64,000 bases of DNA from a virus. The translations under genes and the position numbers were made by a program. Under the pieces are notes generated by a model, which was not told the origin of the DNA, ran no database searches, and saw only the letters and a program-made list of their open reading frames with translations. Where the stretch lies: positions 78,705-142,704 of the IMG/VR virus record IMGVR_UViG_3300025009_000054. One strand, 5' to 3'. Shown piece after piece: positions 1 to 29,262 of this stretch (positions are counted from its first letter, which is position 1; each line of letters opens with the position of its first letter).

Positions 1-1940
1 CATCCGCTAGCCCTTCCCGTATTACACATGACCTCAAGCACACGCCCATCAGTATCCTTATTTACAGTAATATATATACTGCCACAGTTTCCAACCTTAA
101 ATACCGACGTGCTACCAGATAGAAGCTGTGGCCTAGTAGTAGATCTTATATCCTCCGGTGTATGGGTTTTCCCACCAGCAGACATTGGTTGATTCTCACG
201 GCAGTTATTTCTATATACTGTCATTCCTTTACACCCAGTCTCATATGCCAACTTTATAGCACCAGCGACATCTTCAACTGTGGAGTTGTTATTCATATTA
301 ATGGTTTTGCTAATGGATAGATCTATATGCTCCTGAAACGCTGCTTGCATTTTGATATGATCAGACCAATGTATATCGTGCGCACATACAAATAGCCTCT
401 TCAGGGACGACGGGAGTCCTGTAATATTTTGAATTGATCCATCATGTTTTTTTGCAATCTCACTAATTAAATCATTCGACCATATACCAGCACGTTTTGA
501 TTCATCGACAAACATGGGGTGAACTTCACTCATCTCAGTGCCATCAAGTACTGTCCTGGTATAAGCCACTGAGTACATCGGCTCTATACCGCCAGTGACA
601 CCTGCAATTATTGATAACGACCCAGTCGGTGCTACACACGTCCTAGTAGCATTACGGATAGCGTACTTACCATCGTATATACTGCCACTCCACGCTGGAA
701 ATGCACCACGTTCATTAGCCATATAAATAGATTCTTCGGTAGCAATATTTGAGATAGCCTGCATTACCATCTTACCAGTATCACGAGCTTCTTCGGAATC
801 ATATCTCAGTCCAAGTTTGAGTAGCATTTCTGCCCAGCCCATAACGCCTAACCCAATCTTGCGTGTGAGCAGCGTAGCATCTTTGATTTCTGGAAGTGGG
901 TAACAATTGACATCTATTACATTGTCGAGGAATCTTACTGCAGTTCTAACAGTAGATTCCAATATATCCATGTCTATTTTTGGCATATCATCATTAGTGA
1001 CCATTAAAGATAAGTTGATAGACCCCAAATTGCATGACTCGTTGGTTAACTGTGGCACTTCTGCACAGGGATTGCAGCCCTCTATCTCACCAAGATGTGG
1101 AGTTGGATTATATCTATTAATATTACCCCTGAATAGTATTCCAGGCTCTCCAGTTGCATGCGCATTATTAACGAGTGCATCGAATAATTGAACGGCACTA
1201 ATTGTGGTTCTATTTCCAGTTGTAGGACACACAAGGTCATATTTACTATTGGTATTGACGGCATCCATAAACGCATCATCCACTAATACGCTTATATTGA
1301 AATTTTTGAGTTTACTTAGATTACTCTTACACTTAATAAACTCAAAAATATCTGGATGGCCTATGGGCATGAGAGCCATATTGGCACCCATGCGCGCACT
1401 ACCTTGTTGCACAGCATCCGTACAAGCATTGATAGCTTCTATAAACGATATTGGTCCACCGGCCTTACCATTTGTCGATGATACCAGAGCTCCCTTTGGC
1501 CTAATATGACCAAAATTAGCTCCAACCCCTCCACCCGACTTATGAATTAAGGCAAATTGCTTGATCGTATCAAATATACCTTCCATCGAATCTGGTAATG
1601 ATAGCGTAAAACATGCCGCGAGTTGTCCATTATCTCGACCGGCATTGATTAGAGTAGGTGTGTTTGGAAGAAAATGCATATTACTCATTAGCGTGTAGAA
1701 GTCAATGGCCTGGCTTATCACATCTTCCATGGATGACCCATATTGCTTATCAGCCATAGCAATAGCAGCAGCTACACGTGCAAACATATCACGCGGACTT
1801 TCTATGCAGTTACCAGCACTATCTTTACGTAGATATCTCTTAGTAAGTAGTGTAGTAGCATTGTCGCTCAACACAGGATCTAGATCTACCTGAGCGTGTA
1901 TCTCAGCAATAATATCATAGGTGTTAAATTCGATAGGCAC
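1..1940 (-). CDS. nrdJ: Class II (adenosylcobalamin-dependent) ribonucleotide reductase, 3' end off window
   Basis: Reduces ribonucleotides to deoxyribonucleotides for phage DNA synthesis, using vitamin B12 to make the radical. It starts at GTG (1940) behind a GGAGGAAG site inside the end of the upstream lyase gene. Visible landmarks are NTPTLINAG (about residues 93-101), an active-site Cys near 110 in AACFTLSLPDS, GGGVGANFG (136-144), and the catalytic NPCAE (290-294, Cys292 and Glu294). Later come PTGSLS and the TGCKGMTVYR-type segment. The frame is open to base 1, so the C-terminal part, which should hold the redox-active cysteine tail, lies outside the window. There is no NrdB-like partner nearby, as expected for class II. 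Last gene of the metabolic operon in this window. Confidence 0.93.
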   Translation of the reverse strand, partial: MPIEFNTYDIIAEIHAQVDLDPVLSDNATTLLTKRYLRKDSAGNCIESPRDMFARVAAAIAMADKQYGSSMEDVISQAIDFYTLMSNMHFLPNTPTLINAGRDNGQLAACFTLSLPDSMEGIFDTIKQFALIHKSGGGVGANFGHIRPKGALVSSTNGKAGGPISFIEAINACTDAVQQGSARMGANMALMPIGHPDIFEFIKCKSNLSKLKNFNISVLVDDAFMDAVNTNSKYDLVCPTTGNRTTISAVQLFDALVNNAHATGEPGILFRGNINRYNPTPHLGEIEGCNPCAEVPQLTNESCNLGSINLSLMVTNDDMPKIDMDILESTVRTAVRFLDNVIDVNCYPLPEIKDATLLTRKIGLGVMGWAEMLLKLGLRYDSEEARDTGKMVMQAISNIATEESIYMANERGAFPAWSGSIYDGKYAIRNATRTCVAPTGSLSIIAGVTGGIEPMYSVAYTRTVLDGTEMSEVHPMFVDESKRAGIWSNDLISEIAKKHDGSIQNITGLPSSLKRLFVCAHDIHWSDHIKMQAAFQEHIDLSISKTINMNNNSTVEDVAGAIKLAYETGCKGMTVYRNNCRENQPMSAGGKTHTPEDIRSTTRPQLLSGSTSVFKVGNCGSIYITVNKDTDGRVLEVMCNTGRASG

Positions 1941-1942
1941 TA

Positions 1943-3196
1943 TTATCTTCCTCCAGGGTTTATTGCTCTTTTGATTCTCATAAGCGAGAACCTGTCATAT
2001 CTTATATCGAGATTATCACGATTAAACCGCATACTCTCGACCTTGGCATTATCACACCAGCCACATTCTATCGTAGACGCAGCATAATTACGACCACTAC
2101 TGTATGTGTTGCCATTAGACATATGACTACATGCTATGATATGTGATGCGAATGCTGGTATATCATCATCGGTTCCAGATGCCTTACATATGTTCTGCAT
2201 CATTTTACCCGTATCAACCCCAAGCGACGCTATCACACTATACATTGATTCAATCATGTAGAGAGTTAAATTATACGCTTCGGGATAGATCATTCTCTCA
2301 TTTGCAGAATTTGTTAAATCCCGCTCGTGCCATGTTGGGATGTTCTCCATCGCAACAACCACGTATGATCTGACCATCCTAGCGAGGGAACATATACGTT
2401 CACATAATCCTGGATTTTTACCAGACTTATGTTTCATTGACGACGACCCAGCCGCAGATTCCTTCGACACCTCATATACCTCATCAATTTCCGGACGAGC
2501 GAGGTTTCTTATCTCTGTTGCAATACGCTCTAGGGTGCTAGCTATAAGTGCTAGCTGACATATATACTTAGCATATACCGATCTATCGACGATCTGCGAC
2601 GACGCTGCCGCTGGATATAGTCCCAGTATATAGCACGCTTTCCTCTCGACATCTGGATCGAGTACATTATACGACCCAACTGGTCCAGACATCTTACCAT
2701 AATACTCGTTAGCATTGAGATCATTGATGTGTCTTGTTATATCCCATATCCAGCTAGCCAATTTGCTAGAAAATTTCATTGGTTCTGCCCACTGTCCATG
2801 CGTCCTACCAATAATTATAGCACCAGAATTATCTTTAGCACACTTCTCTATGGCATTTCTAAATTCGACCAGTGAAGACATTATCTGTGTACCACTACGC
2901 ATACACATTAGCGACATCGATGTATCCATAACATCTGATGCCGCTAGTCCATAGTATACTGGAACGCATTCTGGATATTTATCCTCTACCCATGAGATGA
3001 AACCTATCATTTCATGAACATATTCATTGATAAATGCGTTGATAACTGGTAAGTCACCACCTAATATCTCTGGTATGCATTTTTTGGTAGACAAGCCATG
3101 CGATTTAATTACAGCATTCATAACCTGTGCCCAGGTTTGGTATTTGGATAGATCACTCCAAATACCATTACATTTGGTATCGTATCGGCTAGTCAT
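1943..3196 (-). CDS. purB: Adenylosuccinate lyase, phage-encoded, altered signature loop
   Basis: Fumarase/aspartase superfamily. It cleaves fumarate from succinylo-purine nucleotides. The 417 residues match bacterial PurB along most of their length: AASDVMDTS (85-93), RTHGQWAEP with the expected catalytic His133, a KMSGPVGSYNVLDP block (168-181), and the flexible signature loop GSSSMKHKSGKNPG (250-263). Canonical PurB has SS(A/S)MPHKRNP here. This copy has Pro to Lys and two extra residues (Ser-Gly). WHERD follows at 289-293. It lies four genes from dNTP and replication functions and in the same operon as the PurZ-like gene at 19.4-20.6 kb. I infer that its substrate may be the succino-2-aminoadenine deoxynucleotide made by PurZ. 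Ordinary adenylosuccinate lyase activity is the alternative. Confidence 0.88.
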   Translation of the reverse strand: MTSRYDTKCNGIWSDLSKYQTWAQVMNAVIKSHGLSTKKCIPEILGGDLPVINAFINEYVHEMIGFISWVEDKYPECVPVYYGLAASDVMDTSMSLMCMRSGTQIMSSLVEFRNAIEKCAKDNSGAIIIGRTHGQWAEPMKFSSKLASWIWDITRHINDLNANEYYGKMSGPVGSYNVLDPDVERKACYILGLYPAAASSQIVDRSVYAKYICQLALIASTLERIATEIRNLARPEIDEVYEVSKESAAGSSSMKHKSGKNPGLCERICSLARMVRSYVVVAMENIPTWHERDLTNSANERMIYPEAYNLTLYMIESMYSVIASLGVDTGKMMQNICKASGTDDDIPAFASHIIACSHMSNGNTYSSGRNYAASTIECGWCDNAKVESMRFNRDNLDIRYDRFSLMRIKRAINPGGR

Positions 3197-3198: not shown

Positions 3199-4044
3199 TT
3201 AGCCCTCCACACGCACTAACATCTTAATATCGGTAATACCCTTAACACCTTCTAAATAAGCAAACCCATCATTTATTGACATTAATCGATATCTAGTAGT
3301 ACCATGCAACATACGAACTACATCTCCATCATGCAACTCTACACCATGCGCGTCATCATTTTTACCTGGTGTCACTGGCACGTTACTGATTATAGGAACG
3401 TTAGTACTCCTAAGCAGAGTTGATATACCATCTTCCTCAATGCGACCCCACAAACCGCGCAGTACCAGTATCGATATAATCGCATAGTTCGACATGTCGC
3501 CCATGGTTTCAATTACGCTCTCTCCACCATCATCGAGTTTGTTCTGAAGAATATTGCGCATGCGGCATGTCTTATCATGCATTCGGCTGTGAATGCCAGT
3601 AACACCAACGTCAGATAGGTTCTCATTACTGTATTTTCGACCACGCTCAACCATAATGGATAAGTTGCGATCACACATTTTCTTAACCTGCTGATCTACC
3701 TGCGCTGCATCCATATAGATTAGATTGTCCTCATCGAATAATCCTGACGATGCTACTAGCTGTCCAACAACTCCATATACCGCGATTCGCTTAAATATGT
3801 CTATGGCAGCGCAGCAAGCTTCACGACTAATCTCACTACCAGTATATACACACGGCTTTAGGTTGTCAATATCACCCATACCGACGAGCACTCCAGCGTC
3901 TAACCATAACATCTGACACGATGCCAGTATTCCATCTACCCCTATCCTGCTAACGACTGACATTGAACGTGGTGTATCGGTTAGCATGTTGATCGCAGCA
4001 GCCCCAATACTGTCTACTTCTGTACTAAGTATCGATATTTTCAC
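3199..4044 (-). CDS. DUF1599-like (nucleotide-modification-associated) protein
   Basis: A 281-residue protein. I choose GTG at 4044 because GGAGG stands 7 bases upstream and the longer frame (to 4089) would run back into the primase gene. The middle part has the pattern GRKYS...GVTGIHSRMHDKTCRMRN followed by GESVIETMGDMSNYAIISILVLRGLW. This resembles DUF1599, a domain linked by comparative genomics to phage nucleotide modification and dNTP metabolism. The first 120 residues carry several Cys and a LWLDAGVLVGMGDID stretch that I cannot assign. The C-terminal 60 residues look like a small beta domain. It sits between primase and adenylosuccinate lyase, so a role in nucleotide metabolism is likely but unproven. 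Confidence 0.6.
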   Translation of the reverse strand: MKISILSTEVDSIGAAAINMLTDTPRSMSVVSRIGVDGILASCQMLWLDAGVLVGMGDIDNLKPCVYTGSEISREACCAAIDIFKRIAVYGVVGQLVASSGLFDEDNLIYMDAAQVDQQVKKMCDRNLSIMVERGRKYSNENLSDVGVTGIHSRMHDKTCRMRNILQNKLDDGGESVIETMGDMSNYAIISILVLRGLWGRIEEDGISTLLRSTNVPIISNVPVTPGKNDDAHGVELHDGDVVRMLHGTTRYRLMSINDGFAYLEGVKGITDIKMLVRVEG

Positions 4045-4045
4045 A

Positions 4046-6742
4046 TTACGCCTCCACACTCTCTTGACTACCAGATGGCATCCCACCACCTAGCGTCGGC
4101 TGACCATCGGATGGCTCAAACCACGAAGTCGTTTCGCCATCCCATACTGCATGGACGATACCTTCTCTGCCACCTCTATTCTTACTAATATTAATTATAT
4201 GTCTGCCATACTTAAATCCAATCTCATTTATGATCTTCTCAGGTTTCTTCTGTGGAATCATGAATGTATCGCAGTCAGCCCATATCTTCTTCGATCCACC
4301 AACATGCTCGGCACCTATCGGATTAAATTCTCTCTTTTGATCCATCATGCCAATAGCTGATGCCGATAACTGTGCGGCACACACAGCAGCTATATCTAAA
4401 TTTCCTGCCATATTTTTAATACCGGTGGATACATCTCTATACTCTGCCCATAGTTCACCTGAGGAATGCGACTCGCTTCCGAGTAGCTGTATGTAATCTA
4501 TAAAGACGGCAGATATATCGTATTTCAGTTTATACAAATGGGTGATAGCTGAAACAGCCTGAATTGATGCACCGTACTTTGTTTCAATAAATATGGGCAT
4601 TTGGCTTATGGCATATGCAGCATCTTTAACCATATCGAGTTCTAACTGAGTTAGATACCCGTACTGCATGGCGTTTATGGTCACACGCTGTCCAAACATT
4701 ATCCATATGAGCATTGAGTATAACCTAGTCATAACGTCACCATCTTCCATCTCCATGTTGACGAAGAGGACAGGTGCACCCTGTAATGCCATGACAAGTG
4801 CTATCTTTAGCATAAGCGCACTCTTGCCTTGTCCAGGCAATGCTCCTATGACGATATACTTCTGTTTCCTGATACCGCCAAGTGTAAGCGATAATGCTGG
4901 GAATTGTGGTCTAAGGTCAAATCCTGGTAACGTGCCTGGATTTGCCACCTGGTTTATGATGAACCTCGTAGTCCTATCGACCAGAGCAATCCTATTGTGT
5001 TCTCCATCACCATCAGATGACCCTCTAACAGCGATGGCAACTACGTCACCGCTTATCTTAGATACTATTTCATCAGATGATATCGACGCGTCAATACACA
5101 TCGACATTGTACCAGTCATTTTTTCATATAGGGTACGTCTCTTATACCTATCGATAATTATATCTAAGCACGACTGCCAATCCTCATACGACGCACTAAA
5201 TACAGCATCGACATTCGTTTGAGATACCAAATTGCCTTTACCAGACGCAACTATATTAGAGTGTACGACATGGGCAGTAGGTACTCCGGCCTTGGCACGT
5301 TCTTCTACGATCGCGCTAAATATGAATTTATTTGAGAATACATAGAAGCAGTCCTCTGTCAGCGACGATACACACTGTGCATATATCTGCTCATTACCAG
5401 CCATAGCCGATAATATTTTATTTTCGGACGTCGCATCAGATAATACTGACGTATCATATATTCCAGACGATACGCATGCAGTAATTGTTTGCTGATCGAT
5501 TCCTACGGCATCAGATATGCATTTACACGCTATTGCTTTGTTAAGTGGACTCAATGTATGGACTCTAGAGCGTACCTTGTTTATGAGCATATGTACATCA
5601 AGCACGTTGTCTACTACTGTATCAAGCATAGACTGTTCTATATAGTATTGAGCAAAATGCGTTGCATTGTTGAGCTTATCATCAATTGACGCAATACCAT
5701 GAGTATTTATGACGTCATCTGGGTCTAGTCCTGGTGGCAATGTTACGATATCTAATATCATGCCATCATCTATACTAAGCTGTGATACTAAATTATATAG
5801 ACCTTTTCTGCCACCAGCATCACCATCCCACATTAGCGAAATTCTAGATGCGCCATATTGTTTAGCAGTCATAACCTGTTCTGGCGATAGGTTGACGTTC
5901 ATAACTCCAACTGTAGATAGCCTATTACATGAATGCATGCGCATCACATCGAAAAATCCCTCTACAGCAATGAGCCGACCACTCTCTCTTATATGCTTTC
6001 GAGCTCTATGCATACCATATAACGGTGATGCAATCGGGTATACAGGAGAATTCCTACTGGTACCAGCCCATTTATCCTTTGATGGCGTCATAGCTCTACC
6101 ACGAAAGAATACTATATCACCCTCAGCATCATGTATCGGGAATATCAACCTCCCACCGAATAGATTATCGTTTGTGAGCTCTAACCTATCAATGGTAATA
6201 TCATCAACACCAGCACTACGCATGGCTACGATAAGGTCATGGGCATGCTCCGTATATCCTAAATTGAAGTCGTCCTGTGTCTGAGACGGAATCTGCCTCA
6301 CATCAGTAACATACTCAACTATCTTTTTATTCTGAAGGTACATCTGGTGCATTACGTCAGCGGCCATACCATTGATTCCGCACAAATAGTCATGCCACTG
6401 TTCCTCTATGGTAGGCTCTCTAAGATAATCTTTGATATCTATATTAAAATCGACACTAAATTGTTCAACAGCTTCTATGAACGTCAATCCTAGATATGCT
6501 TGAATAAATCGTATAACATCTTTTCCATGCTTATCGGAACAGCTACCGAAGCATTTCCATATTTGTTTACGATCGCTTACTACGAAACTAGGGTCATTAT
6601 CAGCGTGGAATGGACAACAGCACCTACTTACGGATCCTGCCTTCTCTAAGACTATATATCTACCAATTGCATCTGATAGTGGAACAGCATTTGATATGAA
6701 CTGGATTAGACCTTGTGGGTCACGAACTCTTAATTTTCCCAT
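4046..6742 (-). CDS. Fused primase-helicase (T7 gp4-like architecture)
   Basis: Makes RNA primers and unwinds DNA at the phage replication fork. The 898 residues hold an N-terminal CHC2-type zinc finger (CPFH at 43-46, Cys64, Cys68), then a DnaG-like TOPRIM core (LIAVEGFFDV about 257-266 with Glu261; MWDGDAG with Asp306 and Asp308). After a long linker comes a RecA-fold DnaB-family helicase domain with Walker A GALPGQGKS (633-641), NMEMED (662-667) and the Walker B-like VFIDYIQLL near 760. The C-terminal SKNRGG segment matches the DnaB arginine-finger region. Starts at ATG after AGGGG. Its last codons overlap the ribosome site of the next gene. Confidence 0.93.
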   Translation of the reverse strand: MGKLRVRDPQGLIQFISNAVPLSDAIGRYIVLEKAGSVSRCCCPFHADNDPSFVVSDRKQIWKCFGSCSDKHGKDVIRFIQAYLGLTFIEAVEQFSVDFNIDIKDYLREPTIEEQWHDYLCGINGMAADVMHQMYLQNKKIVEYVTDVRQIPSQTQDDFNLGYTEHAHDLIVAMRSAGVDDITIDRLELTNDNLFGGRLIFPIHDAEGDIVFFRGRAMTPSKDKWAGTSRNSPVYPIASPLYGMHRARKHIRESGRLIAVEGFFDVMRMHSCNRLSTVGVMNVNLSPEQVMTAKQYGASRISLMWDGDAGGRKGLYNLVSQLSIDDGMILDIVTLPPGLDPDDVINTHGIASIDDKLNNATHFAQYYIEQSMLDTVVDNVLDVHMLINKVRSRVHTLSPLNKAIACKCISDAVGIDQQTITACVSSGIYDTSVLSDATSENKILSAMAGNEQIYAQCVSSLTEDCFYVFSNKFIFSAIVEERAKAGVPTAHVVHSNIVASGKGNLVSQTNVDAVFSASYEDWQSCLDIIIDRYKRRTLYEKMTGTMSMCIDASISSDEIVSKISGDVVAIAVRGSSDGDGEHNRIALVDRTTRFIINQVANPGTLPGFDLRPQFPALSLTLGGIRKQKYIVIGALPGQGKSALMLKIALVMALQGAPVLFVNMEMEDGDVMTRLYSMLIWIMFGQRVTINAMQYGYLTQLELDMVKDAAYAISQMPIFIETKYGASIQAVSAITHLYKLKYDISAVFIDYIQLLGSESHSSGELWAEYRDVSTGIKNMAGNLDIAAVCAAQLSASAIGMMDQKREFNPIGAEHVGGSKKIWADCDTFMIPQKKPEKIINEIGFKYGRHIINISKNRGGREGIVHAVWDGETTSWFEPSDGQPTLGGGMPSGSQESVEA

Positions 6743-10814: not shown

Positions 10815-11204
10815 CTATGTCAAGCTTGACTCTAAAGCATGCTTATCATCCTGAGCAGATGTAGAGCCAGCTCCCATACCACCCTTGTCTGGATCACTAG
10901 CCCAATCACGCTTAAATACCTCTGTTGATACTTCGGTAATCGCGTCCTGCAAATCTATGCCCTCGGCACTACAATACCCAGCTAGAAATACTATAACATC
11001 AGCAACAGCGTCTCTAGCCTTTGATAGATATGTCTCTCTTGTCATGCCACGTATACCCTGAACACTCTTTAGATGCGCGTGTGCTAATTCACCTATTTCC
11101 TCTACGGCTCCAAGTAGACAGTGATACGGCACTTGCTCACCAAAATTCCTATCAGACCACTCCTTTTGATTTCTCTGTAATTCTCGAAATGTTAGCTCAC
11201 TCAC
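10815..11204 (-). CDS. MazG-like nucleoside triphosphate pyrophosphohydrolase
   Basis: 129 residues from GTG at 11204. It shows the all-alpha NTP-PPase pattern: EEIGELAHAHLK (metal-binding EExxE), a short linker, then DAVADVIVFLAGYC and a VFKRDW end. The last about 25 residues are a disordered tail. The family hydrolyses dNTPs to dNMPs and PPi. In Z-genome phages a MazG-like enzyme (MazZ) turns dGTP into dGMP, the PurZ substrate. Because this phage also encodes a PurZ-like protein, that role is the leading hypothesis. General dNTP clean-up or (p)ppGpp hydrolysis are alternatives. It overlaps the helicase stop region and sits upstream of the PARP gene. Confidence 0.82.
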   Translation of the reverse strand: MSELTFRELQRNQKEWSDRNFGEQVPYHCLLGAVEEIGELAHAHLKSVQGIRGMTRETYLSKARDAVADVIVFLAGYCSAEGIDLQDAITEVSTEVFKRDWASDPDKGGMGAGSTSAQDDKHALESSLT

Positions 11205-14122
11205 AGTGATAGTACCTCATACCCTTCATCAGTCGCGTATTTTACCCTATTTCTATGATGCTTCGATAGATACCTACAATTCATATCGGCAATGTCAAGA
11301 ACAAGACCATTCTTCTTATCAGGTCTATTTGGATCTTTCCTCATGACACGACCAACACGCTGTATATACATGCCACGCTCAGCACCATCAACCACCACAA
11401 TTAAGTCTAAACTAGGAACATCAACACCCTCATTAATGAGTGTAGTTATCATGCATTTAAGCTCACGGCTCTTAAGTTTAGTAAATGCACGTTTTCTATC
11501 GCCTTTACTATCACTACTAATAAGCAAGATAGCACCAGGTATTAGGGGTAGTAAATTTTTACCATGCTCCACTTTACTAATAGCTATAGCTACAGTAGAT
11601 CCACTATCCATAGCACGTATTACACTATCGGCTATCATTTGGTTACGTTCTGCATTGTCTATAATGAGTTGTCTATAGACATCGTTATATGATATGTCAA
11701 TTTCCTTACGACATTTTGGACAATAACCTTTGTGGCCTACGAACGATGCTGAGAATTCGATTACATTACCACATTTGCCCTTACCGACCTTAGTTGGGCA
11801 TATAACCTTAATAATATTTTTAGAATGATCAAATTTCTCGCACCTGATAATGGGCGGGACCAATATTCCAGCATCTATAATCTCTTTTGGACGTGCCATA
11901 TACAGCATCCTCGGAAGAGCCGCTTCAATAAGCAGGTCTGTGTCATCGTCACGGTAAGGCGTCGCTGAGTTATGTACTAATACCCCATTAGCCACAAACG
12001 ATGGATGCCCATCCATTTCTAAATCATATACATAGTCGATACTATCAAATACTGATAGTCCAGTATCCTTGATTTGCACCTCATTAAATGAGTAGTTACT
12101 ATGGCAATATTTTGATCTTGTACCGCTACGACCATTATTCTTACCATTCATAGCATTAGTAGACCATGTTACTATATATGACGGATGTTTACCGATAATT
12201 TTCCTACCATACACAGTTCCACCATCACGTGGTCCGGATTTTGGTGATGTAGATCCCGAAACACCTATACTACGAAGCAAACACAGAATATCCATAACTA
12301 ACTTATAGGATGTCGTGGTGTAATAACACCTTTTGCGATTTCTCGATCTTTCTGCACTATGACCATCAGAATCTATTAATCCATTTAATAATTGACGTCT
12401 AGACTGATATGACCATGAAAAAAGACACTCACCTGGTATATGCTTCGTTAAATGGTTTACCTTACCAAAATACGATTGGAATATATCGACTAATATAGCA
12501 CTATTTATCTCTACCTGGGTAGATCCATCTCGTTTATCAAGTGTTAGATTACAATGTAGCCATGACATACTATTCACTTTACTGATAAATGCATCAACAT
12601 CTTCACTACATATCGAAAAACACAATTGATTTGTATCTATCCAACCATCTCCAATAAAATAGCCCATAATATATGCTAAATCTACAGTTGGAATGTACGC
12701 ATCCACCCACCCACCATGTGAATTACCAGAATAGATCCTAGTTGGTTTTGGCAATATATTTTTATGTTGTTTATATATACTTAACGACAAATAGTGTCCA
12801 TACTGACCACGATTCCTAAACCTAAACCATGCTTTTGGGTCCAAATTTAATGCTCGACGATTAGTACTCGTCAAATCAACACATACTAGGGTTCCTGAGT
12901 CATCAGCTCTATCTGACGCGTCGATCATATCAATACCACGATCACACCAATCTATTCCATCATCTCCAATTAATACATCACCAATAATCAAATCCTGGGC
13001 TGATGCTTCAGACACTATAACCTGATGTTTGGTATCTCCAATATTTCTACCACCAGGTACTATCTTATATATGGAATGATCATTCGTCGTATTTAGCCAA
13101 GTTCCGTATACACGTACACCTGGTAGCTCACTAGATGCCGGTACATGCCTAATAAAATTTTTGATAGGTTTCCATGCAAACTTATCACCAGTCCAACCAC
13201 GTGACATTATGCCCTGACCAGATACATCTATAATCTCATATCCATCAGATGTTATATGTGATGCCATGTCAGTACAAGAAGCAATATAGAAAGCATCTGC
13301 GATTTTACAATGTTGTCCAGTCCCAAAAGGACCACCAATAAGCTCTACATACGATTCGCTATGAACTGATAAACCTACGCGTACGTCGGCCTCGGAAAAG
13401 GCTCCGAAGGTATCGAAAACTGTCTGGGCTCGTAGGTGGTGCATTTCATCGCAAAACACGACTCTCGTGTTTTTAATCATATTCTTAAGGTCATTTGTCC
13501 GATAATCGTCCTTTGAACTCATGATCTTACCAATAGTCTGCAATGTCGCAACAGTCACCACATTAGGTTCAAATACAGTATCACCAACTATTCCAATACC
13601 GGTACTCGGTAAATACTCCTTAAATGATTCATATGTCTGATATAAGAGCTCTATATTATGTACCAGAAACACTGATGGAACACCCATTTCAGCTATGGCG
13701 TGAGCGGCAAGTAGTGTCTTACCAGACCCAGTAGGGAGACATATCACGCCACATTTCTTCTCAAGTATTGCTTGACACGCGGCCTTCTGATAATCTCTAG
13801 GATCTCTATTGGGTGTCCAATCGAACTTATCCTCATACCCCTTCTGAATACGATGGTCAATAATATCAATCTTAATATCTGGTCTAGCCTTAGATATAGC
13901 CCATTTTACTCTATCGACAAGTCCTGTTGGAAATTCATATGTGTCAGAGTTAAAAACTGATACAATGCCCGACATATTCTTTTGTGCCCATTTAGACCTA
14001 TGTTTAAACCCAGGATCCTTATATGAGCACACTGAGCACGCATGGCCTACAGCATTTATTGGGTCGTAATCGCACTCTTCAATAATTATTTTACTATACG
14101 CAGACCTTACATCTATTTTCAT
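11201..14122 (-). CDS. Superfamily 2 DNA helicase (UvsW/XPB-like) interrupted by an intein
   Basis: ATP-dependent DNA translocase. I start it at ATG 14122, which overlaps the preceding stop as TAATG. An upstream in-frame ATG at 14137 has only weak ribosome signals. Counting from 14122: N-terminal domain with a CSVCSYK cysteine pair, motif I CLPTGSGKT (about 128-136), motif II DEMHH (225-229), motif III SATPYRDD, then a C-terminal RecA lobe with a CPTKVGKGKCGNV...CPKC zinc-ribbon insertion, and the final QRVGRVMRKDP motif VI. A 467-residue intein lies between GL and the Ser of motif III. After splicing, a helicase of about 505 residues results. Roles of relatives include branch migration, replication restart and recombination. 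Confidence 0.92.
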   Translation of the reverse strand: MKIDVRSAYSKIIIEECDYDPINAVGHACSVCSYKDPGFKHRSKWAQKNMSGIVSVFNSDTYEFPTGLVDRVKWAISKARPDIKIDIIDHRIQKGYEDKFDWTPNRDPRDYQKAACQAILEKKCGVICLPTGSGKTLLAAHAIAEMGVPSVFLVHNIELLYQTYESFKEYLPSTGIGIVGDTVFEPNVVTVATLQTIGKIMSSKDDYRTNDLKNMIKNTRVVFCDEMHHLRAQTVFDTFGAFSEADVRVGLSVHSESYVELIGGPFGTGQHCKIADAFYIASCTDMASHITSDGYEIIDVSGQGIMSRGWTGDKFAWKPIKNFIRHVPASSELPGVRVYGTWLNTTNDHSIYKIVPGGRNIGDTKHQVIVSEASAQDLIIGDVLIGDDGIDWCDRGIDMIDASDRADDSGTLVCVDLTSTNRRALNLDPKAWFRFRNRGQYGHYLSLSIYKQHKNILPKPTRIYSGNSHGGWVDAYIPTVDLAYIMGYFIGDGWIDTNQLCFSICSEDVDAFISKVNSMSWLHCNLTLDKRDGSTQVEINSAILVDIFQSYFGKVNHLTKHIPGECLFSWSYQSRRQLLNGLIDSDGHSAERSRNRKRCYYTTTSYKLVMDILCLLRSIGVSGSTSPKSGPRDGGTVYGRKIIGKHPSYIVTWSTNAMNGKNNGRSGTRSKYCHSNYSFNEVQIKDTGLSVFDSIDYVYDLEMDGHPSFVANGVLVHNSATPYRDDDTDLLIEAALPRMLYMARPKEIIDAGILVPPIIRCEKFDHSKNIIKVICPTKVGKGKCGNVIEFSASFVGHKGYCPKCRKEIDISYNDVYRQLIIDNAERNQMIADSVIRAMDSGSTVAIAISKVEHGKNLLPLIPGAILLISSDSKGDRKRAFTKLKSRELKCMITTLINEGVDVPSLDLIVVVDGAERGMYIQRVGRVMRKDPNRPDKKNGLVLDIADMNCRYLSKHHRNRVKYATDEGYEVLSL
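11969..13369 (-). mobile_element. Intein with LAGLIDADG homing endonuclease in helicase motif III
   Basis: Protein-splicing element of 467 residues. It starts with Ser (SVHSESYVELIGG) and ends with VLVHN before the Ser of SATPYRDD, so N-terminal Ser, penultimate His, terminal Asn and +1 Ser are all in place. The centre has two LAGLIDADG helices, LAYIMGYFIGDGWID and LLNGLIDSDGHSA, each with its acidic residue. Both splicing and homing activities look intact. It disrupts the most conserved motif of the helicase, the usual choice of inteins. Confidence 0.92.
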
Positions 14123-14469
14123 TACTGGTTTCCCCATTTCTTAGAACCAGTCATTGATAGCTCTGGTTCGCGTAAACTACCGCGCCTCGACGTAACATCG
14201 TATAAAAACTTTATGGAGTGCATTACTTCTCTTAAGTAATCACGTTTTGTAATTTGATCTTTACTACCATGATCACGTACCGAATGATCAAGTCTAGACC
14301 ACAAACCAACAACATATGAGTAATATGATGGTAACACCATAAACATTTTATCTACTTCATCACCAGGCACTACTGAGGGTACAGACATTCTATGATATGG
14401 TTCTATCGATTCAAATAGTTCCTCATAGGACACGCTCTCAACATTGTACACTGATATTTCTATTGACAT
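14122..14469 (-). CDS. Hypothetical acidic protein
   Basis: 115 residues from ATG 14469, where GGAGG lies 8 bases upstream. Its stop overlaps the helicase start (TAATG). The N-terminal half is acidic (VESVSYEELFESIEP), the C-terminal half helical and basic, with DYLREVMHSIKFLYDV. No domain recognised. Tight coupling suggests co-expression with the helicase. Confidence 0.65.
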   Translation of the reverse strand: MSIEISVYNVESVSYEELFESIEPYHRMSVPSVVPGDEVDKMFMVLPSYYSYVVGLWSRLDHSVRDHGSKDQITKRDYLREVMHSIKFLYDVTSRRGSLREPELSMTGSKKWGNQ

Positions 14470-14485: not shown

Positions 14486-15277
14486 TCATACGCCATATAA
14501 ATCTAGATTTATAATCGCGTTTTTATATGTAGCCTCTACTAAGTCATTTCCTGTATAGTTTCTCCCCTCTTGTAACGAAGCTATACCCATACTAGCAGTA
14601 CCACAAAATGGATCTATTATGGTCTGTCCAGGGTCTGTATATGTAAGAACTAACCTTCTACATATCTCAATTGGTAACTGGTTTAGGCCAAGACGAGGGC
14701 TCCCCTTCTTATGAAATGATCTAGATATGGTACTACATATATCGGAGATCAATCTACCACCAGGATTCCTCTTATCCTCTTTACCACCATAATCAGATAG
14801 ATACTTCTTACAATGTCTACATACTACATGGGGTTCACGTATGCGATGAAACGTCGACTCATATTCACTGAACCTATCATTCGGCATCCTACGCTTTCTA
14901 AGGACTAAGAACGCATAATGCCTAGGATATAGACCATACTTTTTGGGTCGAGCCCCACTAGGTGCATCCCAAGCTATCCAATGTGCGAACTCTATCCAAT
15001 GATTTGTGCATATCTGCGCACCAGCCATCATAGTCTCATATGGCATGTGATGTAGTATGATCCATCCACCTGGCTTCACAGCAACAGCAGCATCTTCAAC
15101 CCAACGATAGAGTTTTGATAAGTATATCCCATTATCTATACTGTCATTGACACTATCACCATACTGTACGTCTAAATTGAATGGTGGATCAAGAAATACC
15201 ATATCTGGCCTATTATTGCGACTAAGGATTGACTTTATAAAATCGTTATATTCCTTATTATGCATTTCATACGGCAT
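14486..15277 (-). CDS. DNA N6-adenine or N4-cytosine methyltransferase, beta-type motif order
   Basis: 263 residues from ATG 15277 (AAAGGA upstream, TAATAATG junction with the previous stop). Catalytic motif IV DPPF comes first (VFLDPPFNLD near residue 27). The SAM-binding motif I DPFCGTASMG comes near the C-terminus, followed by ALQEGRNYTGNDL-like sequence. This is the circularly permuted beta order. A Cys pair CRHCKK sits in the target-recognition region. No restriction enzyme is next to it, so it is probably an orphan methyltransferase that protects phage DNA or modifies adenine. If the genome truly carries 2-aminoadenine, its substrate specificity becomes an open question. Confidence 0.85.
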   Translation of the reverse strand: MPYEMHNKEYNDFIKSILSRNNRPDMVFLDPPFNLDVQYGDSVNDSIDNGIYLSKLYRWVEDAAVAVKPGGWIILHHMPYETMMAGAQICTNHWIEFAHWIAWDAPSGARPKKYGLYPRHYAFLVLRKRRMPNDRFSEYESTFHRIREPHVVCRHCKKYLSDYGGKEDKRNPGGRLISDICSTISRSFHKKGSPRLGLNQLPIEICRRLVLTYTDPGQTIIDPFCGTASMGIASLQEGRNYTGNDLVEATYKNAIINLDLYGV

Positions 15278-15279
15278 TA

Positions 15280-15573
15280 TTAGATATCCTTTAACCATGA
15301 CATAACATCGTCAGCTATATTATCGCCACGGAATACCTTCACAATAACATCTACGTCCCAACCAAATTTCTTTATAGTCTCATTAATAACATTGTCGTGA
15401 ATATTATCATAAACTACTCCCCACATATCGCTTGGACCCATATCAACCATCGGCTTCGCTACAAAACCGATAGCCATCATCACTAACTGGTCAATCAAAT
15501 GTAAAGTCTTTTCACTTGAATCGAGCATTACTATCGATTTATTATCATCATATTTCTGTATCGTTATCTTCAT
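15280..15573 (-). CDS. Hypothetical protein
   Basis: 97 residues from ATG 15573 (GGAG six bases upstream; the in-frame codon at 15585 has none). Compact alpha/beta composition with KITIQKYDDNKSIVML at the N-terminus and an acidic C-terminal helix. No family recognised. First gene after a terminator-like structure. Confidence 0.65.
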   Translation of the reverse strand: MKITIQKYDDNKSIVMLDSSEKTLHLIDQLVMMAIGFVAKPMVDMGPSDMWGVVYDNIHDNVINETIKKFGWDVDVIVKVFRGDNIADDVMSWLKDI

Positions 15574-15854: not shown

Positions 15855-16505
15855 CTACTCAGATTTATCTGTAACATATCCAGCGCGGTTTCTATGAACG
15901 CCCTCTGAACAGTTACAGTTCCAACAAAGCACTCTTAATCCTAAATTATCTGGGTATCCATTATTGCGCAACCATCGATAAAACTTCTCACCACCACGCT
16001 TACCATTAATATTAGAGTGTATAATACCATCTTTATATGAGTGGTCTATTGTTAAAAACAATAGATTAGTCTCATGACAGACTACGCATTCGCTTCCATA
16101 ATGAGATATGGCGTCGTACTTCAAACGACGTGAGTATTTCGTATAGTAATTGCTAGACTCAACTATGCCATTATGAGGACATTGCCCACTATTAATAGAT
16201 CTCCCAGAGTTACAATTCCAACACAATAATCTATAACAAGTTGGATATCCATCACGGACTATCTGACGATACAAAGCATGAGTATTTCCAGCTTCCCTAA
16301 GATGTGCTTTACCACCACCATCAATATGATCTAAAGTTAGGAAATCAATATTACTGATACCACAACATGAACATTTACCACCATAATGCTCAATAATCAA
16401 TATGCGGGCTTTCTCTCTGTATCTACGTTTTATAGATTTAATGACATCTGGATGTGACTGGCGATACTCAGCATTCATAACTTTACGCTGTTCTTTACTT
16501 ACCAT
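15855..16505 (-). CDS. Tandem HNH-type endonuclease-like protein
   Basis: 216 residues. Two homologous zinc-bearing HNH-like modules stand in tandem. The first (about 35-120) has CSCCG, LTLDHIDGGG, a long REAGNTHALYRQI helix and LLCWNCN. The second (about 130-205) has CVVCH, LTIDHSYKDG and VLCWNCN. The second lacks part of the first's DHIDGG loop and may be inactive. Such proteins are often mobile homing nucleases or packaging and repair nucleases. The ATG start overlaps the end of the upstream nuclease gene and has no clear Shine-Dalgarno sequence, suggesting translational coupling. Confidence 0.78.
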   Translation of the reverse strand: MVSKEQRKVMNAEYRQSHPDVIKSIKRRYREKARILIIEHYGGKCSCCGISNIDFLTLDHIDGGGKAHLREAGNTHALYRQIVRDGYPTCYRLLCWNCNSGRSINSGQCPHNGIVESSNYYTKYSRRLKYDAISHYGSECVVCHETNLLFLTIDHSYKDGIIHSNINGKRGGEKFYRWLRNNGYPDNLGLRVLCWNCNCSEGVHRNRAGYVTDKSE

Positions 16506-17010
16506 CTAATAGTCCAGCCATTTTACACATCGTTACCCAATCGGACATTTGCATAACAACAAATCTATTAGTATCTCCCTTGATATGAAAACCCATCCAC
16601 GGAATCTTAGGCGGGCTACACTCGCCTGCATCTCTTATTATATCGTCTAAATCTTTTCTTGGTAACACAATATTCTTCTGCACTACACTATGTGGAGTAA
16701 TATCTTTACACTCACCAAGTAATTTGTTACTAACAATATCACCTTTACCGAACTCTTTACTACTACCGGAGTATGGTACTCGATCAGAACCTGTAGCCTT
16801 AGCAAATGCTTTTTCATTTGCCTTACCACGTGCGCGGTTTCTACGGTTTCGCTTTATACGCTCAAATTTGTCAACACGTGCCTTTTCTAGTATATCGGCT
16901 TTCGCAGTATCTGTAAGCGTATCAAGCACTAACTTATATTTATCAAGAGCCTTCGTCTGTTCCGCTGGAGTTAGTATTGTGTTCTCCAGAGTCACCTTCT
17001 TTGATCTCAC
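16495..17010 (-). CDS. Holliday-junction-resolvase-like (Hjc-type) PD-(D/E)xK nuclease
   Basis: Up to 171 residues. The core has the order expected of archaeal-type resolvases: basic RNRARGKANEKAFAKATG with the first acidic residue, RVPYSGSSKEFGKGDIV, then LLGECKDI (the ECK half of the nuclease site). A basic helical N-terminus precedes it. The reading frame from GTG 17010 overlaps recA by 68 bases. A shorter start near 16.93 kb is possible and I cannot decide between them. Directly downstream of recA, it likely resolves recombination intermediates. Confidence 0.78.
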   Translation of the reverse strand: MRSKKVTLENTILTPAEQTKALDKYKLVLDTLTDTAKADILEKARVDKFERIKRNRRNRARGKANEKAFAKATGSDRVPYSGSSKEFGKGDIVSNKLLGECKDITPHSVVQKNIVLPRKDLDDIIRDAGECSPPKIPWMGFHIKGDTNRFVVMQMSDWVTMCKMAGLLDGK

Positions 17011-17989
17011 TTGGCATACCAGCTTTCTGTCTTACAACGGCTATTAAATCCATAATATGCTGACAAAACACTGGATCTGATCTTAACGCAACATCTATAG
17101 CCTTCTTACCATTCCACTTTTTGTCAGTGTTAGCAAGGTAAAACCACGACGACACTTGCGTTATAATATTAAGCGAGATTGCCTCTTCGATTAGATTACC
17201 AATTATATCTATACCAGAATCAAATCTAAAGTCATACTCACCCTTGCCATACGGTGGAGCAACTGATGATTTCTCAACAATAACTCTAACTCTGTGACCT
17301 ACAACATCATCGCCCAATTTGATCTGTTCAAGTCTTTTTAGTTCTAGTCTAAGCGATGCCCAGAATTTGAGAGCCCTTCCACCGGCTGTATCTTCATTTT
17401 TACCGAACATAACCATTGGCTTAGAACGCTTCTGGTTGATAAATACTACTATACACTTCTTTTCGGCAACCTTCGGACCAATCTTCCTTAGTGCCTCAGC
17501 CATAAGTTTCGAAGTTGGTGCGATGTGGGTATCACCAATATCACCCTTAGCTTCATCTTCTGTTACAAGAGCAGCTACACTATCTAGAACGATAAAATCG
17601 AAAATATCCGCATCGATAGCATCTTCAAGTATCTGTAATGCCTCTTCACCAACCATCGGACGTGCATATACAAGTCGATCCGGATCCATTCCTAGCATCA
17701 ATGCGAATGCACCCCAGAATCTACGTTCCATATCTATCCACAGAACGTTACCACAAACATTTTTCTGTATAGACGCACCCCATACCATAGCTAAAGCTGA
17801 TTTTCCGACAGCCTCATCTCCAAATATCTCTACAATAATGCCACGCGGTGCACCACCAAGCTTGATAGCTTTATCGAGTGCTGGTATTCCTGTGGATATA
17901 ACTTCTCCAGGTGGTGGGACCTCTGTACCAACTCTACCTGGGTGTTTTTTACTCTGGGATGTTATAAAATCAGTAAGGGGACCTGCCAT
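16943..17989 (-). CDS. recA: RecA/UvsX-family recombinase
   Basis: 348 residues. Strand-exchange protein that coats ssDNA and pairs homologous duplexes. Walker A is GDEAVGKSA (57-65), Walker B-like FIVLDSVAAL, then FINQKRSKPMVMFG and TAGGRALKFWASLRLEL, typical for RecA. The C-terminal tail is acidic and Gly/Ser-rich. The annotated ATG is preceded by GGAGG at a rather long spacing of about 12. Neighbours are an ssDNA-binding protein upstream and a resolvase-like nuclease downstream, forming a recombination module. Confidence 0.94.
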   Translation of the reverse strand: MAGPLTDFITSQSKKHPGRVGTEVPPPGEVISTGIPALDKAIKLGGAPRGIIVEIFGDEAVGKSALAMVWGASIQKNVCGNVLWIDMERRFWGAFALMLGMDPDRLVYARPMVGEEALQILEDAIDADIFDFIVLDSVAALVTEDEAKGDIGDTHIAPTSKLMAEALRKIGPKVAEKKCIVVFINQKRSKPMVMFGKNEDTAGGRALKFWASLRLELKRLEQIKLGDDVVGHRVRVIVEKSSVAPPYGKGEYDFRFDSGIDIIGNLIEEAISLNIITQVSSWFYLANTDKKWNGKKAIDVALRSDPVFCQHIMDLIAVVRQKAGMPSEIKEGDSGEHNTNSSGTDEGS

Positions 17990-18070: not shown

Positions 18071-19297
18071 TTAAGCTACAATGCTAGTTAGCTTAGTATC
18101 AAGCAATCTTAGCTCTTCAACCGTAAGCATATTGATATCGGCTGTTCTTCCATTGCTAGCATCCTTGATGTAAGACGCCAGCTCTGCAAAATTACTGCCA
18201 GTATCAAGTTTACGAAGCTTATCAGCAACTGCAGTACCGATTACTACCCTCTCATCAACCGGTGCCTGAGGAGGATGAACGGTTGCTGTCGGTACAGACG
18301 TCATGTTGACAAGTGCCATATCAAACGCACTCTTTAGCAGGCCAGCAGGAAGACCTGTACTGAACTCTGTCGCGTACTGTCGGTCCATTGACACTATATC
18401 CCCGACCGTCTTCCCAGGGTACTTTCCCGTTGGGCATACAATAGCTACCGCCTCATTCGGGTTTATCCTGATTTCTGATGGTCCAGGAGTGCCCATATCA
18501 CCAACTGGTCCGGACTGACCAAACTGGCCGTTAGGCATCGCAGGTGGTGGTCCGTAGGACTGCATTGGCATCGGAGCAGGTGCCCCGAACTGCTGTCCTG
18601 GTTGTGGTGCACCGAACTGCTGTGGCTGTCCGTATGACTGCATCGGAGCCGGTGCACCGAACTGCTGTGGCTGTTGTGTTTGCATACCGAACTGCTGTGG
18701 GGGAGCAGCCATTCCACCCATATTACCAACTGGCATATTAAGCTGTTGGATTAGCATTTGAATCTGTTCCATGCTTTTAGCCTGGAGTTCATCTACGGCA
18801 TCAATATCAATGAGGTCTGCTTCATTGAACTGAATCGGAGCCTGATTAGCCATAGGAATGACAGTATACTGTCCACCTTTAGCCTGTGGCCTTGTGATAA
18901 TGAAATCCACACAGGACACATCTTTATTATACGCTGTGTAAATAGCACCAATCGGATTCCAAATCTGCGTACCACCAACAAGAACCTTATGCTCAGGTTT
19001 AGGTGTATCGAGGACTAGCACGTTACATGCATGTCTCATTGCAGAAGGAAATCTCTGTCTATTCACGCACATTGGGCAAAGACCCTGGCCAAGGCACTTC
19101 TCGTAGCCTCTCCACTGTCCCCTACCATTTTCACCTTGTGGGTTATATTCATACAGCGAATGACCCCACCAGCTACACAGGTCACCAAACTTCGGATGGC
19201 CTGGTACAAAGAGCAATCTCACTCTATGAGACTCTCCAGCTTTGAATTGCAGAAGCTTACCGCTCCCACCGACTCCGTTTACGTCATTAAAAGACAT
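18071..19297 (-). CDS. Single-stranded DNA-binding protein (gp32-like) with QFGAP-rich linker
   Basis: 408 residues from ATG 19297 (GGGAG upstream). The N-terminal half, RVRLLFVPGHPKFGDLCSWWGHS followed by CLGQGLCPMCVNR, resembles phage gp32-type ssDNA-binding proteins with a Cys/His metal site. A low-complexity segment (about 190-270) repeats PQQFGAP/QSYGQP units. A second folded part follows (CPTGKYPGKTVGDIVSMDRQYATEF), and a helical C-terminal end. The last part recalls domains seen after ssDNA-binding folds in exonuclease-associated proteins. Lies directly upstream of recA and downstream of the PurZ-like gene. The ssDNA-binding role is inferred from pattern and context. Confidence 0.65.
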   Translation of the reverse strand: MSFNDVNGVGGSGKLLQFKAGESHRVRLLFVPGHPKFGDLCSWWGHSLYEYNPQGENGRGQWRGYEKCLGQGLCPMCVNRQRFPSAMRHACNVLVLDTPKPEHKVLVGGTQIWNPIGAIYTAYNKDVSCVDFIITRPQAKGGQYTVIPMANQAPIQFNEADLIDIDAVDELQAKSMEQIQMLIQQLNMPVGNMGGMAAPPQQFGMQTQQPQQFGAPAPMQSYGQPQQFGAPQPGQQFGAPAPMPMQSYGPPPAMPNGQFGQSGPVGDMGTPGPSEIRINPNEAVAIVCPTGKYPGKTVGDIVSMDRQYATEFSTGLPAGLLKSAFDMALVNMTSVPTATVHPPQAPVDERVVIGTAVADKLRKLDTGSNFAELASYIKDASNGRTADINMLTVEELRLLDTKLTSIVA

Positions 19298-19351
19298 TCG
19301 TAATCTCCCTTCAGGAATTTGAATTTTGTCTGAACTATGTATAAACCCAGA

Positions 19352-19379
19352 GCCAACGAACATGCAAACCGACGTTGGC
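19352..19379 (-). other. Hairpin downstream of the purZ-like gene
   Basis: Arms GCCAACG (19352-19358) and CGTTGGC (19373-19379), 14-base loop, just after the synthetase stop. No run of U follows on the minus strand. It may slow or process the transcript rather than end it. Confidence 0.4.
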
Positions 19380-19389: not shown

Positions 19390-20592
19390 TCAGTACTTGC
19401 TTTGATAGGCCGGTTCGAAGTCCCTCTTATATCCAGGCTTCGATGATGATTCAGGCGATAGTATGCCGGATTTGAATGCAAACTCTCTAAGTTTACCTGG
19501 ATGCATAGTGATTATATGTTCTGGGCGTGGACCCGTACTTAGCCACCCAATAGAATCAAATAAATCATATTCTGCAGCGAATTTGGCCACCCATTCTTTA
19601 CTAACCTGGGACAGACCTTCCCAAGCATTTTTACCATAGTCAATCGCGGCGATATAATCTATGAACGTGACCATTATCGATCCTGGTCGATTAATAGCAA
19701 GGGCTTTTCTAAACAATTTAGGACTAATCTCACCAACTCTTCTAACTCTCTTCGTAACAGTCGTCATTTCAATAACAGGCTTAGACGATCCACTACGAGT
19801 CTGAATTTCTTCCCACGTGAGTTCCTGAACATTCTCGTCTTCATACCCAAATGGTCCACTGTTGCCAGCAACCCTAATTGGATATGTTCTCATAACACCA
19901 TATATACTACGTACGGACATTGGTGATAGTCCAGCTTCTGCAAGCCAGTTTGCTGCGTTTGTATCTCTGGACGTAGTTTTTGGATATAAACCATGGTACA
20001 TCGATAAAGCCATTCCCTGAGTTCCTTCGAGCATAACGGGAAATCCATTGTTTACCATATTATTGAGTATCATGCATGTATCGCCGATGTAGGGTTTAAG
20101 ATAACTCACATCTTTGGCTAAGGTCACATCACCCTGCCTTTTAATCCTATCAATGAGAGCCGCACCACACCCTTCACGTGTACTACCAATAGCTTCGAAC
20201 AGATCTTTACTACCATCTTTTCCATGCTCAGCATCAATATGTTTCTGCTCAATCAGAATGGCATTTGGATCAATGACGAGTCTACCATCATCCCATACCT
20301 TTTCTTCCTTCAGCCAACCGATTTCCCGATCTAGTACGGTTGGAATAATCATAGCACCAGCACCAATTACGAGCTGTGCTTTTGGTGCCGCTATAGACCC
20401 GCATGGAATGGTTTGAAAAGCAAGCTTCTTCTTTCCATCTTTACTATAGACATAATGGCCAGCATTCGGCGATCCTGTACGCACTAAAGCACCATTATTA
20501 TATTGCCCAGCAATATGTTCACACAATTTTCCTTTTGCTTCAGAACCAAATGCGAGTCCGACGACGATATCTACGCACCTATTAGTGATCAT
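19390..20592 (-). CDS. purZ: PurZ-like succino-aminodeoxyadenylate synthetase (PurA family)
   Basis: 400 residues. In the known pathway PurZ joins dGMP and aspartate to form N6-succino-2-amino-dAMP, the precursor of the Z base that replaces adenine. The fold is clearly adenylosuccinate synthetase: NAGH (49-52), IGSTREGCGAA, EGTQGMALSMYHG, TSRDTNAANW, and TKRVRRVGE near residue 290. The first loop reads GLAFGSEAKGK, so Ser17 replaces the catalytic Asp of PurA GDEGKGK. That is the hallmark substitution reported for PurZ. At about 400 residues it is shorter than bacterial PurA (about 430). ATG start with GGAGG nine bases upstream. It lies in the same operon as RecA, the MazG-like enzyme and PurB. 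An unusual PurA is the alternative. Confidence 0.88.
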   Translation of the reverse strand: MITNRCVDIVVGLAFGSEAKGKLCEHIAGQYNNGALVRTGSPNAGHYVYSKDGKKKLAFQTIPCGSIAAPKAQLVIGAGAMIIPTVLDREIGWLKEEKVWDDGRLVIDPNAILIEQKHIDAEHGKDGSKDLFEAIGSTREGCGAALIDRIKRQGDVTLAKDVSYLKPYIGDTCMILNNMVNNGFPVMLEGTQGMALSMYHGLYPKTTSRDTNAANWLAEAGLSPMSVRSIYGVMRTYPIRVAGNSGPFGYEDENVQELTWEEIQTRSGSSKPVIEMTTVTKRVRRVGEISPKLFRKALAINRPGSIMVTFIDYIAAIDYGKNAWEGLSQVSKEWVAKFAAEYDLFDSIGWLSTGPRPEHIITMHPGKLREFAFKSGILSPESSSKPGYKRDFEPAYQSKY

Positions 20593-29257: not shown

Positions 29258-29262
29258 GAAGA

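What the first reader, a model, noticed from the sequence alone, without database searches (positions are those of the whole stretch)
19390..20592. PurZ-like synthetase with the Asp-to-Ser hallmark: probable Z-genome phage
The first loop reads GLAFGSEAKGK with Ser17 where PurA has the catalytic Asp of GDEGKGK. All other PurA landmarks are kept. This exchange is reported for PurZ, which acts on dGMP to start 2-aminoadenine synthesis. The genome may therefore replace adenine with Z. The polymerase and DatZ are not in the window, so full substitution is not shown.
Basis: partly seen in the sequence, partly recalled or inferred. Interest (0 to 1): 0.9.

Follow-up and report, generated by a model that had tools for sequence, protein, structure and literature searches.

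The report
Third PurZ lineage with bacterial-type replicase
A large uncultured virus of bacteria carries a gene set that probably swaps the DNA letter A for its relative Z, and it pairs that set with a bacterial-type DNA copying enzyme instead of the special one described in nearly all known Z viruses.

Summary
Window 19390-20592 (-) encodes a 400-residue adenylosuccinate-synthetase homologue with Ser17 in place of the PurA catalytic Asp. It falls outside all Asp-bearing PurA, but in neither named subgroup: with seven IMG/VR proteins it forms a third supported clade (99/97), apart from PurZ and PurZ0. I read the rest of the 142.7-kb record. Instead there is the PurZ0-type partner: a dUTPase whose thirty best phage matches are all from PurZ0-type actinophages, behind a deoxyribosyltransferase-like domain that looks circularly permuted. 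The record also has a PurB-like lyase, a MazG-like phosphohydrolase and a DnaE (family C) replicase. Of 48 PurZ-bearing records, 10 have DnaE, 23 PolA and 5 PolB, without overlap; all 10 DnaE records have a dUTPase. One isolated member, Bacillus phage vB_BpsS-140, was reported uncut by DraI although its genome has 21 DraI sites; EcoRI did cut it. Best reading: a large-phage variant of the 2-aminoadenine system, with dATP removal replacing polymerase choice. Z in the DNA, and full replacement, are not shown. A viral PurA/PurB pair for ordinary AMP is the main enzymatic rival.

The parts
19390..20592 (-). PurZ-like succinoaminodeoxyadenylate synthetase, 400 aa
   Evidence: Pfam PF00709 8.9e-48; NCBIfam PurZ NF038379 214.7 bits, below its cut-off of 300; tree; AlphaFold model pLDDT 90.8, best PDB fold matches Pyrococcus PurA, phiVC8 PurZ, PurZ0
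20542..20544 (-). Ser17 codon replacing the PurA catalytic Asp
   Evidence: alignment with E. coli PurA Asp13 and S-2L Ser23
1943..3196 (-). PurB-like adenylosuccinate lyase, 417 aa
   Evidence: Pfam Lyase_1 1.1e-28; phmmer to Hiyaa PurB 1.5e-47; best phage hits include Streptomyces PurZ0-type phages
10815..11204 (-). MazG/PRA-PH-like phosphohydrolase, 129 aa, candidate MazZ counterpart
   Evidence: PF01503 3.4e-4, phrog_715 2.2e-6, MazZ profile 2.6e-7; guanine-contact Asp60 of S-2L MazZ not kept, so specificity unknown
3199..4089 (-). DUF1599/Nmad1-like protein, 296 aa, possible second nucleotide phosphohydrolase
   Evidence: weak PF07659 0.0036, phrog_1485 6.4e-12
1..1940 (-). ribonucleotide reductase large subunit (gene runs on to record position 78386, outside the window)
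   Evidence: phrog_84 6.4e-157
4046..6742 (-). DnaG-type primase / DnaB-type helicase, 898 aa
   Evidence: phrog_6444 7.5e-57 and phrog_19 1.6e-48
11201..14137 (-). UvsW-like helicase interrupted by a LAGLIDADG intein
   Evidence: PF04851, PF14528, PF14890; phrog_16
16495..17010 (-). Holliday-junction resolvase-like protein
   Evidence: phrog_2002 1.1e-9
16943..17989 (-). RecA/UvsX-like recombinase
   Evidence: PF00154 8.4e-65
18071..19363 (-). 430-aa protein between recA and purZ; same position and size in relatives G001 and G004 (homology not shown)

Best explanation
The record is most of a large tailed phage that makes 2-aminoadenine (Z) for its DNA. Proposed pathway: the phage ribonucleotide reductase supplies deoxynucleotides; a MazG-like enzyme and/or the DutZ-like dUTPase turns dGTP into dGMP and dATP into dAMP; PurZ condenses dGMP with aspartate, probably using GTP; the phage PurB-like lyase releases dZMP; host kinases make dZTP. 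The DnaE replicase need not discriminate: with dATP removed by the DutZ-like protein and its fused deoxyribosyltransferase-like domain, dZTP is the main partner for template T. Shown by sequence: the Ser-type synthetase in a third clade, the PurB-like gene, the fused dUTPase nearest to DutZ, the DnaE replicase, and no detectable DatZ or PolA in this record. Inferred: each substrate, the direction of flux, and Z in the DNA.
For: Ser17 and Thr277 plus the insertion after Val241, three PurZ features (PMC8342488). Tree of 43: all Asp-PurA on one side (98/96), target in a Ser-type clade (99/97) (116-row tree). dUTPase of the same record: its thirty best phage matches are all PurZ0-type phages such as Hiyaa, Arthrobacter phages and Wayne; every PurZ0 phage in PMC12884076 has dutZ and 85 of 98 dmtZ. 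The two closest relatives (112 and 178 kb) have an adjacent deoxyribosyltransferase-like gene overlapping the dUTPase gene, beside the primase and ribonucleotide reductase genes. Four other clade members carry a DatZ-like HD protein, near purZ in three of them. PurB matches those of Hiyaa-type phages. Polymerase sets A/B/C over 48 records are disjoint, and a dUTPase is in 10 of 10 DnaE records. vB_BpsS-140 (PurZ, DnaE, dUTPase, deoxyribosyltransferase-like gene) was reported uncut by DraI (PMC6483233) although its genome has 21 DraI sites.
Against: No wet-lab data on this phage. PurZ scores below the NCBIfam PurZ cut-off (214.7 of 300) and is as close to Pyrococcus PurA (36%) as to PurZ0 (35%). 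Arg282 (E. coli Arg303, which contacts the IMP 2'-hydroxyl) and Asp312 (E. coli Asp333) are PurA-like. No DatZ or PolA. The MazG-like enzyme lacks the guanine-contact Asp of MazZ. An N6/N4 DNA methyltransferase nearby hints that some adenine may remain. EcoRI cut vB_BpsS-140 DNA, which argues against full replacement there, and that phage's PurZ lies in the PurZ clade, not the target's.
Confidence: 0.68

Rival explanations
1. The synthetase and the PurB-like lyase together are a viral purA-purB pair that makes ordinary AMP from IMP during infection; the Ser is a tolerated change and the DNA holds normal adenine.
For: Phage has both synthetase and lyase. Arg282 and Asp312 are PurA-like. Best solved-structure match is Pyrococcus PurA. 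An N6/N4-type DNA methyltransferase is encoded.
Against: The replaced residue is the catalytic Asp of PurA. The protein is excluded from Asp-PurA at 98/96. The DutZ-like and DatZ-like partners in the clade fit Z-DNA and not AMP synthesis. PurZ0 phages of the Hiyaa type also carry PurB.
Confidence: 0.15
2. PurZ works on dGMP, but replacement is partial or slight, because the DnaE replicase does not choose Z and dATP removal is incomplete; Z then serves as patchy protection of A-bearing sites.
For: No DpoZ-type PolA, no DatZ, adenine-type methyltransferase kept, DnaE enzymes of PurZ phages not one clade, so no sign of a shared Z-selective replicase. vB_BpsS-140: DraI blocked but EcoRI cuts (PMC6483233).
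Against: S-2L reaches full replacement with a non-selective PrimPol plus dATP removal (PMC8065100, PMC8342488). The target has a DutZ-like protein that could remove dATP.
Confidence: 0.3
3. The gene is a decayed or chance remnant without function.
For: Only that the protein is divergent.
Against: Open 400-aa frame with a good ribosome-binding site, conserved substrate residues, seven relatives in a clade sharing Ser and a shared gene neighbourhood.
Confidence: 0.02

Closest known systems
PurZ0 system of actinophages (Arthrobacter Wayne, Gordonia Ghobes, Streptomyces Hiyaa; PDB 7vf6)
   Same: Ser-type synthetase with the PurA-type Asp (Asp312) at the cofactor site; dUTPase nearest to DutZ; deoxyribosyltransferase-like domain fused to the dUTPase; PurB-like lyase as in Hiyaa
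   Different: 33-35% identity; separate clade at 99/97; DnaE instead of PolA; the fused domain looks circularly permuted; record of at least 142.7 kb
PurZ system of phiVC8, S-2L and SH-Ab 15497
   Same: Ser, Thr277 and insertion after Val241; MazG-like enzyme; DatZ-like protein in four clade relatives
   Different: no DatZ or PolA in this record; Asp312 in place of Asn/Gln at the cofactor site; separate clade
Bacillus phage vB_BpsS-140 (MH884512, DSM 29700)
   Same: PurZ, DnaE, dUTPase, deoxyribosyltransferase-like gene, RecA, resolvase-like gene, UvsW-like helicase and primase-helicase shared
   Different: its PurZ lies in the PurZ clade; 55-kb siphovirus; no match to the target's PurB
Archaeal-type PurA (Pyrococcus horikoshii, 5k7x)
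   Same: fold, length class, most active-site residues, 36% identity
   Different: Asp instead of Ser, Gly instead of Thr277, shorter loop after Val241; other side of the tree

Membership tests
PurZ/PurZ0 (2-aminoadenylosuccinate synthetase) | Ser at the PurA catalytic Asp | tested here: met
   Ser17
PurZ/PurZ0 (2-aminoadenylosuccinate synthetase) | Thr (S-2L T273) in the aspartate loop and an insertion after the ribose-side Val | tested here: met
   Thr277; AGNSG insertion after Val241
PurZ/PurZ0 (2-aminoadenylosuccinate synthetase) | loss of the Arg303 contact to the 2'-hydroxyl | tested here: inconclusive
   Arg282 kept at that column, Lys in phiVC8, Wayne and Hiyaa; loop shape differs
PurZ/PurZ0 (2-aminoadenylosuccinate synthetase) | falls outside Asp-PurA in a tree | tested here: met
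   PurA one side at 98/96; target in a separate Ser clade 99/97
PurZ/PurZ0 (2-aminoadenylosuccinate synthetase) | inside the named PurZ or PurZ0 subgroup | tested here: not met
   third clade
PurZ/PurZ0 (2-aminoadenylosuccinate synthetase) | NCBIfam NF038379 cut-off | tested here: not met
   214.7 bits, cut-off 300
PurZ/PurZ0 (2-aminoadenylosuccinate synthetase) | uses dGMP and makes dSMP | not testable with these tools
   needs an enzyme assay
Z-genome phage, PurZ type | DatZ | tested here: not met
   no hit in this record; four clade relatives hit; record may be a fragment
Z-genome phage, PurZ type | PolA-type DpoZ | tested here: not met
   PF00476 no match; DnaE instead
Z-genome phage, PurZ0 type | DutZ | tested here: met
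   dUTPase domain at record 76346-77239, thirty best phage matches all PurZ0-type phages; activity untested
Z-genome phage, PurZ0 type | DmtZ (deoxyribosyltransferase with Tyr/Asn/Glu triad), often fused to DutZ | tested here: inconclusive
   residues 1-92 score 12.8 bits to a DmtZ-like profile, best of 200 shuffles 7.5; triad found only in permuted order; AlphaFold without alignment failed
Z-genome phage | dZ in virion DNA | not testable with these tools
   LC-MS needed

The most novel reading that the evidence does not exclude
A third, large-phage lineage of Z-DNA biosynthesis in which a family C (bacterial-type) replicase copies a Z genome, selectivity is set by nucleotide-pool control alone, dZMP is completed by a phage PurB, and the dAMP-handling domain is a circularly permuted deoxyribosyltransferase fused to DutZ.
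Probability: 0.4. Interest if true: 0.8.

Novelty: new variant of a known kind. Interest (0 to 1): 0.64.

Why it matters
PMC8342488 states that all Z phages but S-2L have a PolA, and PMC12884076, which treats the Z-phage polymerases as PolA-type DpoZ, does not mention DnaE. A DnaE replicase on a Z genome would show that the bacterial type of replicase can copy Z:T DNA, and that removing dATP is enough to set the base. The question of what decides Z over A becomes testable in a cultured phage, vB_BpsS-140, which has PurZ, DnaE and a reported DraI-resistant genome. It also extends Ser-type PurZ to virus records of up to 312 kb.

Tried and rejected
Close-relative scans of IMG/VR with the single PurZ and with the fused dUTPase found nothing. 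AlphaFold of the fused dUTPase without an alignment gave pLDDT 32 and was not used. A shared Z-selective DnaE was considered: the DnaE proteins of PurZ phages are not one clade, and eight comparator DnaE phages lack PurA/PurZ. DUF550 (MazZ-2 type) and DUF5664 were sought and not found. The dUTPase was at first aligned to Wayne in normal order; this failed at the N-terminus, and the permuted order fits better. Literature searches for PurZ with DnaE gave nothing. Absence claims rest on one linear record that may be incomplete.

Full report
Observation. The ORF at 19390-20592 (-) is real, 400 aa, with an AGGAGG ribosome-binding site. It is an adenylosuccinate synthetase homologue (PF00709 8.9e-48; phrog_1211 1.5e-67). 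Ser17 stands at E. coli PurA Asp13. Most PurA landmarks are kept, but Thr277 and the insertion after Val241 are PurZ features, whereas Arg282 and Asp312 are PurA-like. Asp312 suggests GTP as co-substrate (inference from E. coli Asp333; Wayne and Hiyaa PurZ0 also have Asp there). An AlphaFold model from 38 sequences (pLDDT 90.8) matches Pyrococcus PurA, phiVC8 PurZ and PurZ0 in the PDB.

Placement. A scan of IMG/VR with an eight-sequence PurZ alignment found 519 relatives. In a 116-row tree and a careful 43-row tree the target lies outside Asp-bearing PurA; in the careful tree all ten PurA lie together (98/96). PurZ (100/99) and PurZ0 (100/100) are recovered. The target sits in a third clade of eight (99/97) with IMG/VR loci L015, L019, L017, L060, L029, L022 and L026. 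Other Ser-type clades exist, including copies on Rhizobium and Sinorhizobium plasmids and in an Acidobacteriaceae MAG. So it is not an ordinary PurA, and it belongs to neither named PurZ subgroup. The NCBIfam PurZ model scores it at 214.7 bits, below the cut-off of 300.

The rest of the record. The window is positions 78705-142704 of a 142,704-bp linear IMG/VR record; the part outside the window was read in pieces. There is no PolA and no DatZ. The replicase is a 1053-aa DnaE with PHP, palm and finger domains, at 63026-66187, keeping a DIDIDF motif. A PurB-like lyase lies at window 1943-3196. ThyX (77715-78338) and the ribonucleotide reductase (78386-80644) lie at the window's left edge.

The DutZ partner. 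At 76346-77239, outside the window, is a 297-aa protein with a C-terminal dUTPase (PF00692 3.9e-22). Its thirty best phage matches are all PurZ0-type phages. In PMC12884076 every PurZ0 phage has dutZ, 85 of 98 have dmtZ, and 77 of those 85 are fused; DutZ and DUF5664 hydrolyse dATP and dGTP, and DmtZ removes or transfers the base of dAMP. The target's N-terminal 150 residues resemble such a deoxyribosyltransferase with its halves exchanged: the Asn and Glu of the triad lie in residues 1-60, and the Tyr motif at about residue 98. Residues 1-92 score 12.8 bits against a profile of DmtZ-like proteins, the best of 200 shuffles 7.5. This is suggestive, not proven. The two closest relatives carry the expected unpermuted gene, overlapping the dUTPase gene (PF15891 and PF05014 weak for the one tested).

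Survey. Over 48 PurZ-bearing records, DnaE is in 10, PolA in 23 and PolB in 5, with no record in two sets. A dUTPase is in all 10 DnaE records and in 10 of 23 PolA records (Fisher p 0.002; records are related, so the value is rough). In the target's clade every record tested has DnaE, except L018 (same protein as L017), which has PolB. Four clade members have a DatZ-like HD protein. The DnaE proteins are not one clade, which speaks for pool control and not a shared Z-selective replicase.

A cultured relative. Bacillus phage vB_BpsS-140 has PurZ, DnaE (PMC6375668 names it DNA polymerase III alpha), a dUTPase, a deoxyribosyltransferase-like gene and the same recA, resolvase, helicase and primase genes. 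PMC6483233 reports that DraI cut all tested phages but this one, and that EcoRI cut all. Its genome has 21 DraI and 24 EcoRI sites. [quoted passage not shown] DraI resistance therefore fits modified adenine, while EcoRI cutting argues against full replacement. Methylation or a gel artefact is not excluded.

Mechanism. Proposed: dGTP to dGMP (MazG-like and/or DutZ-like), dGMP plus Asp to dSMP (PurZ), dSMP to dZMP (PurB-like), dZMP to dZTP (host kinases), dATP removal (DutZ-like plus the fused domain), replication by DnaE. S-2L works in this way with its PrimPol (PMC8065100, PMC8342488). Genes are shown; activities and Z in the DNA are inferred.

Verdict. New variant of a known kind. The enzyme assignment is fairly secure, Z in the DNA likely, full replacement open.

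Noticed in passing
MH884512 (vB_BpsS-140), whole record; L213-L215: PMC6483233 reports its DNA uncut by DraI, alone among the phages tested, yet the sequence has 21 DraI sites; EcoRI cut it. Deposited as DSM 29700.
   Followed up: partly
L177 (Rhizobium plasmid pRLN3), L178 (Sinorhizobium plasmid pMl2), L145 (Acidobacteriaceae MAG): Ser-type synthetases grouping with virus PurZ-like proteins on conjugative plasmids and a bacterial contig; cellular or plasmid use of Z, or captured phage genes.
   Followed up: partly
G016/L034 (250 kb), G023/L050 (312 kb), G003/L018, G009/L024, G017/L035: PurZ-bearing records with PolB-type polymerases, including jumbo-size contigs.
   Followed up: partly
window 9446-10717 (-): Phage-encoded poly(ADP-ribose) polymerase with WGR and regulatory domains (PF00644 2.6e-26).
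   Followed up: no
window 11201-14137 (-): UvsW-like helicase carrying a LAGLIDADG intein.
   Followed up: no
window 14486-15298 (-): N6/N4-type DNA methyltransferase with a DPPF motif in a presumed Z phage; its target base would be worth knowing.
   Followed up: no
window 6752-7369 (-): Uracil-DNA glycosylase family protein (PF03167 1.9e-25).
   Followed up: no
record positions 29245-29691 (L003), outside the window: 148-aa HD-motif protein resembling the RelA/SpoT hydrolase type (from sequence reading only); not matched by the DatZ profile.
   Followed up: no
record positions 12479-13090, 75366-76001 and window 15855-16505: Three related small proteins, one an HNH-endonuclease match, with homologues in G001 and G004.
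   Followed up: no
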